Assembly: GCF_003351045.1 (NCBI RefSeq)
Contig: NZ_QQZY01000010.1
Span: forward strand, 36,209 to 100,208
From: Gaiella occulta
GTDB taxonomy: Bacteria; Actinomycetota; Thermoleophilia; Gaiellales; Gaiellaceae
Reading direction: 5' to 3'
DNA: 64,000 bases
Positions 6,982 to 60,828 of the stretch are shown in pieces. Position 1 is the first letter of the stretch; each line of letters starts with the position of its first letter. The position numbers and the translations under genes are program-made. Below the pieces are notes generated by a model. That model had not been told where the DNA came from. It worked only from the letters and a program-made list of their open reading frames with translations, and did not search any database.

Positions 6982-7010
6982 TGGAGGCGGCGGGAATCGA
7001 ACCCGCGTCC
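6982..7010 (-). other. Inferred attachment site at the 3' end of ssrA
   Basis: This stretch is the acceptor and T-arm end of tmRNA, including the GGTTCGATTCC T-loop sequence, a very common integration target. The integrase lies immediately beside it. The duplicated copy that would mark the other end of the element is not present in the window, so the exact crossover core cannot be defined. Confidence 0.5.
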
Positions 7011-7345
7011 GCGGACGCACCGGACAGAGCTTCTACGAGCGTAGTCCGCGCTTGCATCTCGCCCGGCGGCCGGTGGCGGACTCCCTACCGACGGGCCAGC
7101 CATCCTTTGCCGTCGCGCCTTGGGCGATTGGCACTCCCGCCGCGCCGAGCCCGATCGTTGGCGCCCCGGCCCTGGCCTCGGGCCCAGCCAGGCGGGACGT
7201 CGCCTTACCTAGTCAGTGACTAGGCGGCGAGTGCGAGATCGTTCTTCGCACTTGCGTTTGTTCCCGGTGGATTAACGAGGCCGACCGGGGACCTCGACTC
7301 GCAGCTCTGCCGGAGAACCGACCACGTCGAAACCAGGTCGCCCCC
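6982..7345 (-). ncRNA. ssrA: Transfer-messenger RNA (tmRNA)
   Basis: The RNA reads leftward. The 5' acceptor strand GGGGGCG (7345-7339) pairs with CGCCTCC before the discriminator A at 6982, and the T-arm GGTTCGATTCC is intact. The tag frame runs from a GCA at 7255 to TAG at 7222-7220 and encodes ASAKNDLALAA, ending in the usual ALAA degradation signal; resume could be at the first or second alanine codon. The terminal CCA is not encoded, since TCA follows the discriminator. smpB lies 6 kb to the right. tmRNA rescues stalled ribosomes together with SmpB. Confidence 0.95.
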
Positions 7346-53892: not shown

Positions 53893-54449
53893 CGCAGCTC
53901 GACTCCTTCCCTGTCGGCCAGCACCCGCCGCAGCGTCAGCCGGGCGCGGCTCAGGCGCGACGCGACAGTTCCTTCCGGCACGCCCAGTACCGCTGCCGCC
54001 TCCGCATAGTTCAAACCCTCGGCGTCGACGAGCAAGACCGCCGCACGCTCGACCGGCGGCAGCCCCGCCAGCGCGCTCGCGAGATCCTCCCGCAACACCA
54101 CAGCCTCGACCAGATCGTTCTCACCCGCCCGCGGCGTCGCCTCGGCAAGCGAAACCACCGTGAGCCTGCGGCGACGCAGCTCGTCCAGGCAGACGTTGTA
54201 GGCGATCCGGTACAGCCAGGTGCGCACGTCCGCCTCACCACGAAACCCGGCTCGCGACCGAAACGCGCGCAAGAGCGTCTCCTGCAGCGCATCCGCCGCC
54301 CGTTCACGATCGCCGAGCAGCCGGAAGGCAAGCCGTCGCAACCCCACCTCGTGCTCCCGCACCAGTACGAGAAACGCCTCCACATCGTCCTGAAGGCCCG
54401 CCACGGTCCGGGCTGGCATCGCCCGCCCCCGGGAGAGGCTCGAGAGCAT
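53889..54449 (-). CDS. ECF-type RNA polymerase sigma factor
   Basis: Region 2 (FRSRAGFRGEADVRTWLYRIAYNVCLDELRRR) and region 4 (LPPVERAAVLLVDAEGLNYAEAAAVLGVPEGTVASRLSRAR) are clear. About 186 residues. ATG at 54449 or 54419; neither has a good Shine-Dalgarno motif. Coupled to the membrane protein downstream, it probably responds to envelope signals. Confidence 0.92.
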   Translation of the reverse strand: MLSSLSRGRAMPARTVAGLQDDVEAFLVLVREHEVGLRRLAFRLLGDRERAADALQETLLRAFRSRAGFRGEADVRTWLYRIAYNVCLDELRRRRLTVVSLAEATPRAGENDLVEAVVLREDLASALAGLPPVERAAVLLVDAEGLNYAEAAAVLGVPEGTVASRLSRARLTLRRVLADREGVELR

Positions 54450-55188: not shown

Positions 55189-55875
55189 ATGAGACGAACG
55201 GCCTTCTCCCTCACCCTGCTCCTGCTCATCGTGCTGGTCGGCGCCGCGTCCTCCGGAAGCGCCACCCCTCCACCAGGCGCCACCGCCCGTTGCGACGACG
55301 GCACGTACAGCTACTCCAAGCACCACTCCGGAACCTGCTCTCACCACGGCGGCGTTGCCGCCTGGCTCGGCGGTAGCTCCACCGCGCCCGCGCCGACCGC
55401 AGACGGCGGCAGCAGCCGAACCGATGTCGGCCAGACTGTGCTGCTCTCGCCTCGGACGAGAACGACGCACTGCAGGCTCGGCGTCGATCCCGACCGCAGC
55501 TGCTCGCCGGGCGCCTACTACAGCAAGCTGACCAGGCCTGTCATCTGCTCAGCGACATTCCGGACGAGCTCGATCCGGAACGTGCCCGAATCGGAAAAGC
55601 TCGACGTCGAGGCCGAGTACGGGATGAAGCCAGGACACTACGGGCGAACGCTCGAGATCGACCACATCGTCTCGCTCGAGCTCGGAGGTTCCAACGACAT
55701 CGCCAACCTCTACCCCGAGCGCGCCCCCGGCTACCACGCAAAGGACGCCCTCGAGAACAGGCTTCACAGCATGGTCTGCACGGGTGCGATCACTCTTCGC
55801 AGTGCGCAACACCGGATCGCGAGCAACTGGCAGGCGCTCTACAAGAAGGTCTTCGGCGTGGCGCCGACCACCTAG
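55189..55875 (+). CDS. Secreted DUF3761-HNH nuclease-like protein
   Basis: Signal peptide at 1-25. Residues 35-62 (CDDGTYSYSKHHSGTC then SHHGGVAAWL) match DUF3761. Residues about 155-180 (LEIDHIVSLELGGSNDIANLYPE) are an HNH-like core with Asp-His and Asn. Flanking cysteines could form disulfides outside the cell. Likely an exported nuclease; substrate and purpose (nutrition or competition) unknown. Confidence 0.8.
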   Translation: MRRTAFSLTLLLLIVLVGAASSGSATPPPGATARCDDGTYSYSKHHSGTCSHHGGVAAWLGGSSTAPAPTADGGSSRTDVGQTVLLSPRTRTTHCRLGVDPDRSCSPGAYYSKLTRPVICSATFRTSSIRNVPESEKLDVEAEYGMKPGHYGRTLEIDHIVSLELGGSNDIANLYPERAPGYHAKDALENRLHSMVCTGAITLRSAQHRIASNWQALYKKVFGVAPTT

Positions 55876-56242
55876 CCGGGGACCGTCCGCCAACCCGAGC
55901 CGCGTCTCGGCCGCCCGCAAAGCGAGCGTTCAGACGCAGATGTGCTCCGTTCCATCGGCGAGATCGATGCGTTAAGGGACACCGATGTTGATCTTCAGCA
56001 TGGCCCGCTCGAAGTGGACGCGCCAGATGAGGTCGCCGTGGACTCCACCCGCCTATGCGGAGCTCCGCATAGGCGGGTGCATTCCAACCCGATCGAGCTC
56101 GTCACGCAGGTGCAGGCATGACGCAGCCCGCCACGGGCCGGCGCCGACGCCATGGCAGGAATGCTGTTCTCGCAGTTGCCACTGCCCGTCGCATTGCTCG
56201 TGGACGTGCAACTCGCGCCGCGATCGTGCTACGGCCGCAGCT
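55876..56242. other. Non-coding gap with 34-base palindrome
   Basis: Between the convergent HNH and monooxygenase-like genes I see no credible gene. Besides the palindrome at 56046-56079 there is nothing notable; codon statistics of the overlapping frames look random. Confidence 0.5.
56046..56079. repeat. 34-base perfect palindrome
   Basis: CACCCGCCTATGCGGAG is followed directly by its reverse complement, giving a loopless 17-base-arm palindrome. It lies between convergent transcription units and could act as a two-way terminator; no U-run follows. Confidence 0.7.
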
Positions 56243-56538
56243 TCAGTCGATCGATTCGTAGTGGTGGACGGAGCATTCCTCGATCCCTCGGCTTCGCGCT
56301 CGTCCGGGATCACTTCGCTCTCCCAGTTCTCGCCGGTCATGTTCTTCATGGCGTCGAGGCTCTCCCAGACCGAGATCATCACGATTTCGTCGCCCATGGC
56401 CCCGAAGCCACGTCCGCTGTGACGCGCGAGGAGTCCTGGTTGGCCGTCCACGAACGGAATCGAGACCTCCTCGATCAGCTGAGCGAGCTCGTCGCCCATC
56501 CCTCGCTTCGGCCTGGCACGAAAGACGCGAATGAGCAT
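56243..56538 (-). pseudogene. Antibiotic-biosynthesis-monooxygenase-like protein, frameshifted
   Basis: The first frame gives a normal ABM start (MLIRVFRARPKRGMGDEL, MISVWESLDAMKNMTG) up to DEREAE. There the original frame turns into Arg/Ser-rich sequence, while the neighbouring frame continues IEECSVHHYESID and stops at 56245-56243, matching the usual HYE ending. One base indel explains it. Either a recent mutation or a base error. Confidence 0.6.
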
Positions 56539-56572: not shown

Positions 56573-57364
56573 TCAGCGCCGCGCGCGGACGACGACGGCG
56601 ACGCCGACCGCCCGTTGCTTCTCGGGGGCGATCAGCGTTCGCATCAGGGTGAGGATCTCGTCGTCGAAGAGTGGGTAGAGCGCGCAGTCGTCGATGCCCA
56701 TCGGCTTGTGCTCGAGCACCTCGATCTCGCTGAATCCGGCCCGTTCGAGCTTTGCGACGAAGTCACGCTCCGCCAGTGCCCCGGCCACTCAGCCGGCCCA
56801 GGCGGCCGGGTGGGTCAGGACCTCCGGGGGGAGATCGTCCTCGTCGATGGTCAGGTCGGAGACGCACAGCTCGCCGCCCGGCCGAAGGACGCGCGCGCAT
56901 TCGGCGAGCACGCGCGCCTTGCGCGGCGAGAGGTTGACGACGCCGTTCGAGATCACGACGTCGACGCTCGCGTCGGGCAGCGGGATCTCCTCCATCTCGG
57001 CTTCGAGCGTGTCGACGTTCCCGAGCCCGGCCTCGCGCGCCGCCTGCGCCGTCTGTTCGAGCATCTCCGGCAGGAAGTCGAGCGCGATCACGCGGCCGCT
57101 GGGGCCCGCCCGCTGCGCCGCGAGGATCGTGTCGATACCCGAGCCGCAGCCGAGATCGAGCACCGTCGCACCCGGCTCGATGCGCGCGAAACGGAGGTGG
57201 TTGCAGAGGCCGAGCGCACCGTTGCGCGCCGACTCCGGCACCAGCGCCAGCTCCTCCGCGCTGTAGAGGCGCTCGGCGACGCGCGTCGTCGACCCGTTGA
57301 CGGCCCGGTAGGCATCGCGGACGAACGCCTTGATCTCGTCCGAGCGCATCAGGTCGCGGCTCAT
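56573..57364 (-). CDS. ArsM-like methyltransferase with in-frame TGA (probable selenoprotein)
   Basis: Rossmann motif I VLDLGCGSGIDT lies at about 68-79, a conserved cysteine at 54 (LGLCNH), VISNGVVNLSP at about 130. At codon 192 (56791-56789) a TGA interrupts HPAAWAG-TGA-VAGALAERDFVAKL, then the frame goes on for 71 residues with the family's ending (GFSEIEVLEHKPMGIDDCALYPLF). Related enzymes have Cys at this place, the As(III)-binding Cys of ArsM. Sec insertion is therefore likely. The ATG overlaps the anti-sigma stop. If not decoded, the product is truncated at 191 residues. Confidence 0.8.
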
Positions 57365-57594
57365 CTGCCCTCCAACCCGTGCAGCGTCGCGGTCAGTCGC
57401 GCGTGCACGTCGGGCGGCAGCTCCTCGTCGGCGTTCCGGGCGAGGAAGCCGCGCAGCTCCTCCGCGAACTCGAGCTCGCCGCAGCAGCGACGGCAGACGC
57501 TCAGGTGCTCCTCGACCGCGGCGCGCTCGGCGTCGTCGACGAGCCCGTCGAGGTAGTCCCACAGCTCGCGGACGGCCTGGGCGCAGCTGATCAC
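57361..57594 (-). CDS. Zinc-type anti-sigma factor
   Basis: The 77-residue protein has the ZAS motif EEHLSVCRRCC (HxxxCxxC) at about 28-38 with a preceding Cys at residue 4, and a C-terminal helix. ZAS proteins hold ECF sigma factors and release them upon thiol oxidation or metal binding. The GTG overlaps the sigma stop (GTGA) and its stop overlaps the methyltransferase ATG: three genes form a fully coupled operon. Confidence 0.88.
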   Translation of the reverse strand: MISCAQAVRELWDYLDGLVDDAERAAVEEHLSVCRRCCGELEFAEELRGFLARNADEELPPDVHARLTATLHGLEGR

Positions 57595-58199
57595 GCGACC
57601 GGCTCCCGCAGCATCTCGTTGGCCTCCGCGTACTCCCAGAGCCGGCGCTCGAACAGCTTGCGGCCGCGGTGGAGCCGCGCGAGGATCGTCCCGAGCGGCA
57701 CTTTCGTCATCTGTGCGACCTCCTTCGCGAGGAAGCCGTCGACGTAGACGAGCAGGAGCGGCGTGCGGTAGTGCTCCGGCAGCGTGGCGAGCACGGCCTG
57801 GACGTCCTCGCGCCCGAAGCGGTGCAGGAAGTCGAGGTGGAGCGAGTCCGAGTACGGGAACGGATCCTCGTCGGCGAGCTTGCGGTAGAGGGAGAACTGC
57901 TCGATGTCCTCGACCGCCACCTCCTGCGGCCGGCGCGCGCGGCGGCGGTGGCGGTCGCGGCAGCAGTTGACGAGGATGCGCGTGAGCCACGCGGGCGCGG
58001 CATCGCCGTGTTCGAGCTGCCCGAGCCTGCGGTAGGCGTTGAGCAGGCAGTCCTGGACGGCATCCTCGGCGTCGTCGCCGACGAGCCGGCGCGCGAGCCG
58101 GTAGAGGCGCGGCAGCTCGGGCTCGGCAAGCTCGCGGAAGCGCCTCCGAGCTGCATCGGCCGGATCGGTGTCCTCCGTGCATGCGCCATCCGCAGCCAT
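57591..58199 (-). CDS. ECF sigma factor of the selenomethyltransferase locus
   Basis: The 202-residue protein has region 2 (AEPELPRLYRLARRLVGDDAEDAVQDCLLNAYR, TRILVNCCRDRHRRR) and region 4 (LATLPEHYRTPLLLVYVDGFLAKEVAQMTKVPLGTILARLHRGRK). It resembles SigR/ECF12-type factors paired with ZAS proteins. Divergent from the second methyltransferase, 77 bases away; the dyad between them could be the target of another regulator. Confidence 0.92.
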   Translation of the reverse strand: MAADGACTEDTDPADAARRRFRELAEPELPRLYRLARRLVGDDAEDAVQDCLLNAYRRLGQLEHGDAAPAWLTRILVNCCRDRHRRRARRPQEVAVEDIEQFSLYRKLADEDPFPYSDSLHLDFLHRFGREDVQAVLATLPEHYRTPLLLVYVDGFLAKEVAQMTKVPLGTILARLHRGRKLFERRLWEYAEANEMLREPVA

Positions 58200-58221
58200 A
58201 AGACGCTCCCGCGCCCGACGT

Positions 58222-58247
58222 TATTGCATCGAGCGGCAAATGCAATA
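58222..58247. promoter_or_regulatory. Palindromic operator TATTGCAT-N10-ATGCAATA
   Basis: An eight-base inverted repeat (58222-58229 and 58240-58247) with a ten-base spacer sits in the middle of the 77-base divergent promoter region. It is the only A/T-rich stretch there. The spacing suits a dimeric regulator of ArsR, MerR or TetR type; no such gene is in the window. Confidence 0.6.
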
Positions 58248-58276
58248 GCAATCGTCGCGGCAGCGTCTTTACTCCT

Positions 58277-59164
58277 ATGGAACCAGCCCAAGAAGAAATG
58301 CCCGCCGGCATCGACGTCGATCTCCTCAAATCGGAGATCAAGAACACCTACGCGTGCGTGTCGCAGGAGCCCGACAGGGACTTCATCTTCCCGACCGGGC
58401 GCGCCTGGGCGCAAGACCTCGACTACCCGCCCGAGCTCGCGAACGTGCCAGAGGCGGCGGTCGAGTCGTTCGCAGGAGTCGCAAACCCCTGGGAGATCGG
58501 CCGGCTCTCCGCCGGTGAGCGCGTGCTCGACCTCGGCTGCGGCGCAGGCACCGACACGCTCGTCGCCGCGCAGATGGTCGGCCCCGAAGGAAGCGTCACC
58601 GGCATCGACATGACGCCCGAGATGCTCGCCAAGGCGCGTCGGGCCGCCACGGAGATGCGCGCCACCAACGTCGAGTTCGTCGAAGGCGAGATCGAGCTGC
58701 TGCCATTCGCCGACGAGAGCATCGACGTCGTGATCTCGAACGGCGTCATCGACCTCCTCCCCGACAAGGACACGGTCTTCGCGGAGATCTACCGCGTCCT
58801 GTGCCCGGGGGGCCGCATCCAGCTCGCCGACGTCACGATCCAGCAGCCGGTCAGCCAGGAAGGCAAACGCAACATCGACCTCTGGACCGGCTGAATCGCC
58901 GGCGCTCTGCTGGAAGCAGAGTACGCGCAAATCCTGCAACGACACGGCTTCGAGCGAATCGAGACCGGCAACCTCGTCGCAACCTACGCACGCTCGACGT
59001 CGGAGGACACCCGGCGAAAAGCCATCAAATTCGGTGCGAACGGGACAACGGTGAAGGCCTACAAAGCCGTCGCGCCTGCGCGAGCGGCCGGGCGCACGGG
59101 GGCCGACGGCGAGCAGCCGACGAGCTCACGCCCGCTTCGAGAGAACGACGACAAAGGGAGATGA
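58277..59164 (+). CDS. Second ArsM-like methyltransferase with in-frame TGA (probable selenoprotein)
   Basis: 295 codons with TGA at codon 206 (58892-58894). N-terminal NTYACVSQEP and FPTGRAWAQDLDY, motif I VLDLGCGAGTDT at 83-94, DMTPEMLAKAR and VISNGVIDLLPDK are intact. The TGA stands in IDLWTG-TGA-IAGALLEAEYAQIL, the same spot as in the paralogue at 56573-57364. After it, GFERIETGNLVATY and IKFGANGTTVKAYK complete the normal C-terminus; the stop is 59162-59164. A hairpin directly after the TGA fits a bacterial SECIS. The DsrE gene follows after two bases. Confidence 0.82.
58902..58926 (+). promoter_or_regulatory. Candidate bacterial SECIS hairpin
   Basis: After TGA (58892-58894) the RNA can fold GCG-CTCTGCT / AGCAGAG-TA-CGC: seven uninterrupted pairs, a two-base bulge, three more pairs, closing a GGA loop at 58912-58914. 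The loop begins 17 bases after the TGA and starts with G, meeting the known bSECIS rules (distance and G in the first loop positions). SelB binding is inferred. Confidence 0.65.
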
Positions 59165-59166
59165 CG

Positions 59167-59535
59167 ATGACGGACGGACAAAAGGTGCTCGTGAACCTGG
59201 CGACGGGACTGGAGGATGCCGAACGCGTGACGATCGCCTTCCTCGTCGCAACCGCCGCGCTCGACAAGGGCAAGCCCGCCGCGATCTGGCTGACAAAGGA
59301 CGCGGTGCGGCTTGCGCTGCCAGACGAGGCGAAAGGCGAAGCGTGCGACGGCTGCCCGCCGCTCGAGCGGCTGTTCGGCCAGTTCGCAGACGGAGGCGGC
59401 GAGCTGCTCGTTTGCCCGATCTGCTTCAACTCGCGCAAGCTCGACGAATCACAGCTCGTCGGCAACGCGAGGATCGCCGGCGCGTCACCGCTCCACGACT
59501 GGATCGGCGAGGGTGCGACCGTTTTCAGCTACTGA
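59167..59535 (+). CDS. DsrE-family protein with two CxxC motifs
   Basis: The 122-residue protein has the DsrE/TusD-like alpha/beta fold (VLVNLATGLEDAERVTIAFLVATAAL) with Cys60-x2-Cys63 (ACDGC) and Cys83-x2-Cys86 (VCPIC). DsrE proteins carry sulfur (or possibly selenium) on cysteine. AAAGGGAG at 59153-59160 favours ATG 59167; one six bases earlier also exists. It follows the methyltransferase at once, so a sulfur/selenium carrier role in the locus is a reasonable guess. Confidence 0.82.
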   Translation: MTDGQKVLVNLATGLEDAERVTIAFLVATAALDKGKPAAIWLTKDAVRLALPDEAKGEACDGCPPLERLFGQFADGGGELLVCPICFNSRKLDESQLVGNARIAGASPLHDWIGEGATVFSY

Positions 59536-59548
59536 CGCGCCGAGAGCC

Positions 59549-60199
59549 GTGCGGCTCGACCGCGGCGCGCTGACGGCACTCACGGGCGTCGCAGCCGCCG
59601 CCTGGGTCGCACTGGTACTCCAACCGGACGGGATGGCGATGGGAATGCCTGCGTTCCTCGCCGGCTGGACGCTGATGATGGCCGCGATGATGCTGCCCTC
59701 GATCGCGCCGCTCGTGCTGCTCCACCGGCGCGTCAGGGGTGGCGGTCGGAGCACCGTCGCGCTTGCGCTCGGCTACCTGTTCGTGTGGGCGGCCTTCGGC
59801 CTGCCGGCATTCGCGGCGCAGCTCGCGCTCGGTGACCGGGCGCCCGCCGGAGCCGTCGCGGCCGTACTGGTCGTCGCCGGCGTCTACCAGCTGACACCAC
59901 TGAAAACCGCCTGCCTGCGCCGCTGCCGCAGCGCGCTCGATTTCCTGATGCAACGGCCGCAACACGGCGCGGTGCGGCTCGGCCTCACACACGGCATCTA
60001 CTGCGTCGGTTGTTGCTGGGGGCTGATGGCGGTACTCGTCGGCGCGGGCGCGATGGGACTCGCCTGGGCCGCGGCGATCGCCGCGCTCGTCTTCGCCGAA
60101 AAACTGCTCCCGGCCGGCGAGCGCTTCGCCCGCCTGACCGGGATCGCTCTCGTTGTCACCGGACTCGTCATCACCGTCGGAGCCGTGCGCCCCGGCTGA
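59549..60199 (+). CDS. DUF2182 integral membrane protein
   Basis: About six TM helices, with the family segments GWTLMMAAMMLPSIAPLV, YQLTPLKTACLRRCRS and LGLTHGIYCVGCCWGLM. Conserved Met, His and Cys in the helices suggest metal binding. DUF2182 is commonly found beside DUF1326, as here. GTG start chosen at 59549, 13 bases after the DsrE stop; one at 59513 is possible. Confidence 0.85.
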   Translation: MRLDRGALTALTGVAAAAWVALVLQPDGMAMGMPAFLAGWTLMMAAMMLPSIAPLVLLHRRVRGGGRSTVALALGYLFVWAAFGLPAFAAQLALGDRAPAGAVAAVLVVAGVYQLTPLKTACLRRCRSALDFLMQRPQHGAVRLGLTHGIYCVGCCWGLMAVLVGAGAMGLAWAAAIAALVFAEKLLPAGERFARLTGIALVVTGLVITVGAVRPG

Positions 60200-60213: not shown

Positions 60214-60828
60214 ATGACAGAAGCATCAAGCTCGTGGAAGCTCGACGGCACCGTCCTGATCGCCTGCAACTGCGACTACGGCTGCCCCTGCAACTTCAAC
60301 GCGCTACCCACCACCGGCGACTGCGAGGGCCAGTGGACATGGCACGTCGAGCACGGACACCTCGGCGGGGTGACGCTCGACGGACTGAACTTCAGCGTTG
60401 CGGCCGACTGGCCGGGCGCGATCCACGAAGGCAACGGCGAAGCGACCGTCTTCGTCGACGACCGCGCCGACGAGCACCAACTGGAAGCGATCGGCACACT
60501 GCTCAGCGGCGAAGCCGGCGGCCCCTGGGCGATCGTCGGCAAGACGCTCACGACGGTGCATGGCCCACACCAGATGCGCTACGAGCTCACGCTCGACGGC
60601 CTCCACACGACGCTGCGTGTCGGCGAGGCGATGGAGCTCGAGCTGGAACCGATCCGCAACCCCGTCAGCGGCGCCGAGGTACATCCCGGCGCCGTCCTTC
60701 CCGAAGGGTTCATCTTCCGCGAAGGCGCCTTCGCCTCCTCCAAGACCTTCCGGGTCGCCGACGGCGTCAACTACGAGCATCCCGGCAAATACGCCGCCAT
60801 CGCCCCGTTCGAGTACGCAGGTCCCTAG
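60214..60828 (+). CDS. DUF1326 cysteine-rich protein
   Basis: A strong AAAAGGAGGA ribosome binding site precedes the ATG. The 204-residue protein begins with CNCDYGCPCNF (Cys 18, 20, 24, 26) and Cys37, the DUF1326 hallmark, followed by GEATVFVDDRA and the SKTFRVADGVNYEHPGKY ending. Function unknown; cysteine cluster and DUF2182 pairing point to metal handling. Last gene of the unit. Confidence 0.88.
   Translation: MTEASSSWKLDGTVLIACNCDYGCPCNFNALPTTGDCEGQWTWHVEHGHLGGVTLDGLNFSVAADWPGAIHEGNGEATVFVDDRADEHQLEAIGTLLSGEAGGPWAIVGKTLTTVHGPHQMRYELTLDGLHTTLRVGEAMELELEPIRNPVSGAEVHPGAVLPEGFIFREGAFASSKTFRVADGVNYEHPGKYAAIAPFEYAGP

What the first reader, a model, noticed from the sequence alone, without database searches (positions are those of the whole stretch)
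56573..59164. Two divergent ArsM-like methyltransferases each with one in-frame TGA at the same homologous position: probable selenoprotein pair
Seen: one gene reads ...AAWAG-TGA-VAGALAERDF..., the other ...DLWTG-TGA-IAGALLEAEY.... Both frames continue past the TGA for 71 and 89 codons with typical family sequence and end at ordinary stops. Known: arsenite methyltransferases have a catalytic As(III)-binding cysteine in this G-(E/x)-C-x-x-G-A-L context. Inference: UGA is read as selenocysteine replacing that Cys in both. Two independent nonsense mutations at one conserved Cys codon are far less likely. Selenium at the metal(loid) ligand would change As, Hg or Se chemistry.
Basis: partly seen in the sequence, partly recalled or inferred. 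Interest (0 to 1): 0.93.

Follow-up and report, generated by a model that had tools for sequence, protein, structure and literature searches.

The report
Stress-switched pair of selenium methyltransferases
In a bacterium related to Gaiella, two neighbouring genes that resemble arsenic-methylating enzymes each contain one UGA "stop" that is very likely read as the rare amino acid selenocysteine; a likely stress-sensing switch lies between them, and both lack two of the three cysteines that normally hold arsenic, so they would probably handle their target in a different way.

Summary
Observation confirmed: two divergent ArsM-like methyltransferase genes (P1, 56573-57364 minus; P2, 58277-59164 plus) each have one in-frame TGA at the codon aligned with CmArsM Cys224. 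Selenocysteine is strongly supported: selA, selB, selC and selD are in the genome; all 32 P2 and 9 P1 order-level hits with a readable codon have TGA; coding constraint continues past it; a hairpin follows it, with compensatory changes in P2; natural Cys versions exist, even one Cys and one Sec gene in one pair. Sec-containing ArsM proteins are already catalogued (UxxG), so the kind is known. Not found in the papers I could search: (1) all 53 distinct Sec proteins compared lack Cys174, while 56 of 59 Cys proteins keep it; Cys72 is lost too in those aligned, leaving a lone selenium site that makes three-Cys arsenite methylation doubtful; (2) P1 and P2 form a module with an RsrA/SigR-like anti-sigma/sigma pair in several Actinomycetota and one Chloroflexota MAG, often near a DsrE-like gene; (3) the box TGCAAT-N17-CGTCTT is found without mismatch only at this divergent promoter in the whole genome. 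Substrate unproven; I predict methylation of a thiophilic poison at one selenolate during thiol stress.

The parts
56573..57364 (-). P1: ArsM-like methyltransferase gene with in-frame UGA (264 codons with stop)
56789..56791 (-). UGA of P1, very likely Sec192
56755..56775 (-). putative SECIS hairpin of P1: 8-bp stem (three G-U pairs here), loop CGUGA, 13 nt after the UGA
   Evidence: not the minimum-energy fold of the window stretch
57361..57594 (-). zf-HC2 anti-sigma factor, RsrA-like; overlaps the sigma stop and the P1 start by a few bases
57591..58199 (-). ECF sigma factor, SigH/SigR-like (start codon uncertain: the promoter box abuts the first ATG)
58200..58228 (-). promoter-like box TGCAAT-N17-CGTCTT facing the sigma/anti-sigma/P1 operon
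58241..58269 (+). promoter-like box TGCAAT-N17-CGTCTT facing P2
58277..59164 (+). P2: ArsM-like methyltransferase gene with in-frame UGA (296 codons with stop)
58892..58894 (+). UGA of P2, very likely Sec206
58904..58922 (+). putative SECIS hairpin of P2: GCUCUGC-UGGAA-GCAGAGU (or one more pair, loop GGA), 9 nt after the UGA, with compensatory changes in relatives
59161..59535 (+). DsrE-like gene (PF02635), start overlaps the P2 stop; no in-frame UGA before its stop
59522..60199 (+). PF09948 membrane protein (DUF2182/PpoB2), start uncertain; near P2 in few relatives, so a doubtful part
60214..60828 (+). DUF1326 protein; doubtful part, as above
56053..56538 (-). ABM-domain protein after P1; near P1 only here, so a doubtful part

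Best explanation
The locus holds two divergent ArsM-like methyltransferase genes whose single in-frame UGA codons are very likely decoded as selenocysteine at the position of CmArsM Cys224, and between them lies a sigma/anti-sigma pair that is predicted to be a thiol-stress switch serving this locus. Shown by sequence: the UGA codons, the conserved hairpins behind them, the sel genes, the recurring sigma/anti-sigma/P1/P2 module, the twin promoter boxes, and the loss of the Cys72 and Cys174 counterparts. Inferred: when thiols are attacked, the RsrA-like anti-sigma (C-x25-H-x3-C-x2-C) would let go of its sigma factor, which would transcribe its own operon with P1 and the divergent P2-dsrE operon; the two Sec enzymes would then hold a soft, thiophilic poison at one selenolate and methylate it with SAM. 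With only one chalcogen ligand left at the old arsenic site, the likelier substrates are species with a single open soft site (for example an organomercurial or a methylated arsenical) or a chalcogen carried by the DsrE-like protein, rather than free arsenite held by three cysteines. The substrate is a guess; the confidence is for Sec decoding, the dedicated module and a chemistry other than three-Cys arsenite methylation taken together (Sec decoding alone: about 0.97).
For: Sec machinery: tRNA-Sec, selB (11), selD (17), selA (49). TGA at the codon in 32 of 32 P2 and 9 of 9 P1 readable order-level hits; TGC/TGT in the 43-51% identical paralogues. Hairpin: outer codons GCU..GAG 18, GCG..GCG 14, mixed 0 of 32; 97.8% of pair cells paired, covariation 0.264 against 0.106, 0 of 500 shuffles. 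Synonymous changes fall at the hairpin; coding pattern goes on after the UGA (96). Core strands after the UGA in the model. Cys versions in the same module, and one pair with P1 Cys and P2 Sec. 20 of 20 P2-UGA genomes in the phylum set have selA (85). Lost Cys174: 53 of 53 distinct Sec proteins, 3 of 59 Cys proteins; Cys72 column and N-terminal CC motif also lost. Module and RsrA-like motif. Promoter box: 2 in the window where 0.03 are expected, the only perfect matches in the genome, before 12 of 15 sigma genes. The genome's Cys-type arsM sits by an arsR gene elsewhere.
Against: No experiment. Nine of 33 order-level genomes with P1/P2 hits show no selA, selB or clear tRNA-Sec, two of them at least 90% complete, and selB is not enriched over other genomes of the order. 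Hairpin energies are not unusual (z -0.7 to -1.1), and P1's hairpin is not its minimum-energy fold. Some Sec relatives do not form the full stem (L133, L139, L140, L141, L142). Two metagenome proteins have Arg or Leu at the site. In the order, only the window's own P2 has a clear box within 160 bp, so joint control of P1 and P2 is not general there. The anti-sigma and sigma scores are below the RsrA and SigH cut-offs. DsrE is absent within 1.5 kb of 15 of 32 order-level P2 hits (64; many contigs are short). Loss of Cys72/174 does not by itself exclude arsenicals.
Confidence: 0.6

Rival explanations
1. Both are ordinary arsenite methyltransferases in which Sec merely replaces Cys224: they methylate As(III) for arsenic resistance.
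Against: Cys72 and Cys174, reported as conserved in all ArsMs of one survey (PMC5552862), are missing; both scores are below the NF008823 cut-off of 263; the genome has a separate Cys-type arsM next to arsR.
Confidence: 0.2
2. The Sec enzymes methylate a chalcogen (sulfide, persulfide, selenide or telluride) handed over by the DsrE-like protein, with the Se-S or Se-Se bond of Sec as the binding mode; no metal or metalloid is involved.
For: DsrE-like genes lie within 1.5 kb of 17 of 32 and 4 of 16 P2-UGA hits, against 0 of 52 ordinary ArsM loci, and the two genes overlap here.
Against: Many P2 loci have no DsrE neighbour; the sulfur-carrier role of DsrE proteins is recalled, not tested.
Confidence: 0.15
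3. The UGA codons are true stops: the genes are pseudogenes, or the short 191- and 205-residue products are the functional proteins.
For: 118 of the 120 closest database proteins are annotated as ending just before the UGA, as automatic gene callers would do; broken copies exist (L083, L086).
Against: Coding pattern, hairpin covariation and Cys/Sec exchange at one codon; truncation would remove two strands of the core sheet of the model.
Confidence: 0.02
4. UGA is read through as another amino acid (suppressor tRNA or a code change) rather than as Sec.
For: Arg and Leu occur at the site in two metagenome proteins.
Against: Genome-wide UGA stops are used here (both genes end with TGA); tRNA-Sec and the sel genes are present; the site is otherwise Cys or UGA.
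Confidence: 0.01

Closest known systems
Sec-containing arsenite methyltransferase, UxxG (NF008823 in PMC13188914 Table 1; arsenite S-adenosylmethyltransferase selenoproteins in the GOS survey PMC2398784)
   Same: ArsM-like methyltransferase with Sec in a UxxG motif at the Cys224 position.
   Different: Standalone pair in one module with a sigma/anti-sigma switch; scores 217.5 and 224.6 are under the 263-bit cut-off; Cys72 and Cys174 missing. Whether the catalogued reference protein also lacks them was not tested.
NF041537 ArsM_AhpD_UU, NF041536 ArsM_DUF2284_UU, NF047649 MTase_UXPK_star (fusion selenoproteins; the 2026 review cites Haft and Tolstoy 2025 for them)
   Same: P2's best NCBIfam match is NF041537 (229.3 bits) over the methyltransferase part; these have UxxG too.
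   Different: P1 and P2 have no second Sec domain and lie far under the cut-offs (510, 575, 460).
Canonical ArsM/AS3MT (CmArsM 4fr0/6cx6, CrArsM 5evj, human AS3MT 8xt7)
   Different: Sec at 224, no Cys at 72 or 174, no N-terminal CC motif.
SigR/RsrA thiol-stress system (TIGR02947, TIGR03988)
   Same: Best NCBIfam matches of the sigma and anti-sigma factor; C-x25-H-x3-C-x2-C in 15 of 16 hits, the other one cut.
   Different: Both below cut-off (97.6 of 251.55; 47.2 of 62.5 bits); box found without mismatch at one locus only, whereas SigR has a large regulon (recalled).

Membership tests
Bacterial selenoprotein | selA, selB, selC, selD in the same genome | tested here: met
Bacterial selenoprotein | in-frame UGA aligned with Cys in homologues, also UGA in relatives | tested here: met
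Bacterial selenoprotein | SECIS-like hairpin just after the UGA | tested here: met
   P2: position, conservation and covariation. P1: hairpin possible and nearly invariant, covariation not testable
Bacterial selenoprotein | selenium in the protein | not testable with these tools
   needs 75Se labelling or mass spectrometry
NF008823 arsenite methyltransferase subfamily | curated score 263 | tested here: not met
   217.5 (P1) and 224.6 (P2)
Canonical ArsM | Cys at CmArsM positions 72, 174 and 224 | tested here: not met
   224 is UGA/Sec; 72 is Val (P2) or Leu (P1); 174 is Gly in both
Canonical ArsM | methylates As(III) | not testable with these tools
   needs an enzyme assay
Sec-containing ArsM (UxxG) of the selenoprotein catalogue | ArsM-like protein with Sec in UxxG | tested here: met
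   U-V-A-G and U-I-A-G; motif from PMC13188914
NF041537 / NF041536 / NF047649 fusion selenoproteins | curated score and second Sec-bearing domain | tested here: not met
   P1 164.3, 149.4, 149.6 and P2 229.3, 221.9, 207.2 bits against cut-offs 510, 575, 460; only one UGA before the stop
RsrA-type anti-sigma factor | C-x25-H-x3-C-x2-C (spacing of RsrA recalled) | tested here: met
RsrA-type anti-sigma factor | TIGR03988 curated score 62.5 | tested here: not met
   47.2 bits
SigH/SigR sigma factor | TIGR02947 curated score 251.55 | tested here: not met
   97.6 bits

The most novel reading that the evidence does not exclude
A stress-response module not described in the papers I could search: an RsrA/SigR-like switch whose box marks only this locus turns on two sister selenoenzymes of the ArsM fold that have discarded the arsenic-binding cysteines and capture and methylate a thiophilic poison on one lone selenolate, a metal(loid) or chalcogen chemistry distinct from three-thiolate arsenite methylation.
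Probability: 0.4. Interest if true: 0.8.

Novelty: new variant of a known kind. Interest (0 to 1): 0.62.

Why it matters
Of the 120 closest database proteins 118 stop at the UGA, and many carry the name 'arsenite methyltransferase', so arsM surveys may miscount them and their selenium is overlooked. If right, the Sec group has a different active site from ArsM, which makes a clear question testable: what does a methyltransferase gain from one selenolate in place of three thiolates? It also ties selenoprotein genes to a predicted thiol-stress sigma factor in soil and sediment bacteria.

Tried and rejected
Rejected: a stop-codon or pseudogene reading (coding pattern, covariation, Cys versions); sequencing error (same codon in dozens of genomes); co-occurrence of sel genes as proof at order level (no enrichment: selB over cut-off in 20 of the 33 genomes with P1/P2 hits and 53 of the 96 others); hairpin energy as proof; one origin of all Cys174-less proteins as settled (SH-aLRT 87, not starred); a wider regulon (four one-mismatch boxes in the genome, four for the reversed control pattern); PF09948, DUF1326 and ABM genes as core parts (within 1.5 kb of 4, 3 and 0 of 32 order-level P2 hits). 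Ten neighbours of four other P2 genes gave no shared function (PALP, AAA/regulator, secretion-tail, transglycosylase, BTAD/TPR, FAD oxidase, CDGSH, L-PSP, two without match). No paper was found that holds both DUF2182 and DUF1326. The known fusion families were not found over cut-off in 396 Actinomycetota genomes, so I could not check whether they too lack Cys72/174.

What I saw of papers: PMC9312934 outline/abstract and passages; PMC13188914 passages and parts 2 and 3 of its reference list; PMC2398784 passages; PMC12013277 passages; PMC5552862 passages; all others as search listings or no hit. Haft and Tolstoy 2025 (not held) and Fomenko 2007 (reference 87 of the review) were not seen.
Full report
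1. What is there. P1 (56573-57364, minus) and P2 (58277-59164, plus) are divergent methyltransferase genes (Methyltransf_31, E 1.8e-28 and 3.4e-34), each with one in-frame TGA (residues 192 and 206). In front of P1 on the minus strand lie an ECF sigma factor (57591-58199) and a zf-HC2 anti-sigma factor (57361-57594); sigma, anti-sigma and P1 overlap by a few bases. After P2 come a DsrE-like gene whose ATG overlaps the P2 stop, then PF09948 and DUF1326 genes. The assembly has 3.03 Mb in 34 contigs and is 97.92% complete. A genome coded 'same genus' (G061) has a contig of 3,282,754 bases, and so has a record titled 'Gaiella sp. isolate FR_16'; from this I infer a Thermoleophilia relative of Gaiella.

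2. UGA as selenocysteine. The genome has tRNA-Sec (C1:311646-311737, 64.6 bits; ARAGORN: tRNA-SeC, anticodon tca), selA (C1:307019-308293, 515.9 bits) and selB (C1:308379, 329.5 bits) within 5 kb, and selD (C1:188930, 355.7 bits). From searches of 129 genomes of the order I fetched the best loci: 32 of 32 P2 hits and 9 of 9 P1 hits with a readable codon have TGA; three P2 hits end before it and one (L083) has a deletion across it. Four paralogues at 43-51% identity have TGC or TGT. Of the 120 closest proteins listed from a 5.8-billion-protein search (8000 candidates scored), 118 stop exactly before the UGA; two run on with Arg or Leu there.

3. The hairpin. P2: UGA + 9 nt + GCUCUGC-UGGAA-GCAGAGU. 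In the 32 order-level hits the outer codons are GCU...GAG (18) or GCG...GCG (14), never mixed, so a stem change is matched by an amino-acid change, Glu to Ala. On 39 distinct sequences from several phyla (I left out 3 of 42, the most divergent ones, L149, L154, L168), 97.8% of pair cells are standard pairs, 19 cells changed on both sides, covariation 0.264 against 0.106 in shuffles (0 of 500), and slid registers fall to 17-43% paired. The shuffles do not correct for relatedness. P1: UGA + 13 nt + an 8-bp stem with loop CGUGA, nearly invariant in six distinct sequences, with no synonymous change in codons +5 to +11 over 8 genes, against 0.27-0.44 in the other blocks compared except +4 to +10 (0.10), which holds six of these codons; so covariation cannot be tested for P1. 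P2 shows the same dip (0.19 in +4 to +10 against 0.36-0.53; 31 genes). Fold energies are unremarkable (z -0.7 to -1.1), and P1's hairpin is not the minimum-energy fold.

5. Exchange of Sec and Cys. In a Chloroflexota MAG (L137) sigma, anti-sigma, P1 and P2 lie in one row with Cys in both. In the 30 best loci from 396 Actinomycetota genomes the P1/P2 pairs that could be read are Sec/Sec (L207, L215, L218), Cys/Cys (L214), and Cys P1 with Sec P2 (L219). Of the 29 genomes behind these loci (the window's own apart), all 20 with a P2 UGA have selA over cut-off and 18 have selB; of the other 9, 4 have both; of the six whose Cys P2 lacks Cys174, three have both and three neither. At order level the picture is weaker: 24 of 33 genomes with P1/P2 hits have selA, selB or a tRNA-Sec of at least 54 bits, nine have none (two of these at least 90% complete), and selB is not enriched (20 of 33 against 53 of 96 others). 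Nearly all are fragmented MAGs.

6. A lone selenium site. By alignment to solved chains, Sec206 of P2 falls on Cys224 of CmArsM, Gly156 on Cys174, and Val68 on the Cys72 position (Cys in CrArsM 5evj; Ala in 5eg5, the C72A mutant). PMC5552862 says Cys72, 174 and 224 are conserved in all ArsM sequences it retrieved (passage). Of 112 distinct proteins compared here, all 53 Sec proteins lack Cys174 (Gly or Ser) and 56 of 59 Cys proteins keep it; the exceptions are the two Cys proteins of L137 and the one of L144. In the later Actinomycetota set, 24 TGA hits all have Gly, 8 Cys hits have Gly, 3 have Cys, 2 were not readable. In an alignment of 38 proteins the Sec group and these three exceptions also lack Cys in the Cys72 column and the N-terminal CC motif. 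On the tree the 56 proteins without Cys174 are one side of a branch (SH-aLRT 87, not starred), P1 and P2 fall in separate groups, and at least four Sec/Cys changes are needed; the Cys174 column was not taken out before building. So these are not ArsM with one atom swapped. The genome has a separate Cys-type arsM directly after an arsR-family gene (C4, L088).

7. A module with its own switch. Sigma and anti-sigma lie within 1.5 kb of 7 of 9 P1 hits; the other two are fragments. The row sigma, anti-sigma, P1, P2 recurs in L137, L207, L214, L215 and L218, and the divergent form in the window, L225 and order-level loci such as L056, L060 and L064. The anti-sigma best matches RsrA (TIGR03988, 1.7e-12, 47.2 bits, cut-off 62.5) and the sigma TIGR02947 (97.6 bits, cut-off 251.55). 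C-x25-H-x3-C-x2-C is in 15 of 16 anti-sigma hits (the window counted twice, as itself and L208; the 16th is cut). The 77-bp divergent region has TGCAAT-N17-CGTCTT facing both ways; with one mismatch allowed these are the only two in the window, 0.03 expected. GCAAT-N16-18-CGTC with at most one mismatch is found before 12 of 15 sigma genes (0.9 expected by mononucleotide shuffle), 20 of 70 P2 genes (3.6) and 1 of 17 P1 starts (0.8), the window again counted twice. Within the order only the window's P2 has a clear box there; in other Actinomycetota several P2 genes have it. In the whole genome the only perfect matches to TGCAAT-N17-CGTCYT are these two; four one-mismatch matches equal the reversed control. 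So the switch probably serves this locus alone.

8. Function. Methyl transfer from SAM follows from fold and motifs (inference). Thiol stress as the signal follows from the likeness to RsrA (its role is recalled). DsrE-like genes lie within 1.5 kb of 17 of 32 order-level and 4 of 16 other P2-UGA hits, against 0 of 52 ordinary ArsM hits, so a sulfur or selenium carrier may take part. I commit to a thiol-stress response in which Sec is the only soft ligand or nucleophile at the old arsenic site, used on a thiophilic substrate with one open site. Which substrate is open.

9. What is known. The 2026 review lists 'Arsenite methyltransferase, NF008823, UxxG' among experimentally verified selenoproteins, citing a 2007 paper I did not see, and the fusion families NF041536, NF041537 and NF047649. 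P2's best NCBIfam match is NF041537 (229.3 bits, cut-off 510), just ahead of NF008823 (224.6); P1's best is NF008823 (217.5). So Sec at this site is known. The paired module, the lost cysteines and the switch appeared in no paper that my searches turned up, with the reservation that Haft and Tolstoy 2025 was not held.

Noticed in passing
L086:6061-6568 (G061): Only the C-terminal halves of P2 and P1, each with its TGA, lie back to back; the middle (sigma, anti-sigma and both N-termini) is missing, as if deleted. The same genome has a whole P2 elsewhere (L070).
   Followed up: partly
L083:553-1050 (G026): A P2 homologue with an in-frame gap of about 35 residues that takes away the Sec region.
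   Followed up: no
L088:5884-7070 (G000:C4): The genome's Cys-type arsM lies directly after an arsR-family gene, unlike the Sec pair.
   Followed up: yes
window 53919-54341, minus: A second ECF sigma factor-like stretch, 34% identical to the one between P1 and P2.
   Followed up: no
window 6982-7345, minus: tmRNA gene with tag ASAKNDLALAA.
   Followed up: no
window 55189-55875, plus: Small protein with DUF3761 and a weak HNH match.
   Followed up: no
P0003 and P0057 (metagenome proteins): Close P2 relatives that read through the Sec position with Arg and Leu, one base away from UGA; lost function or sequencing error.
   Followed up: no
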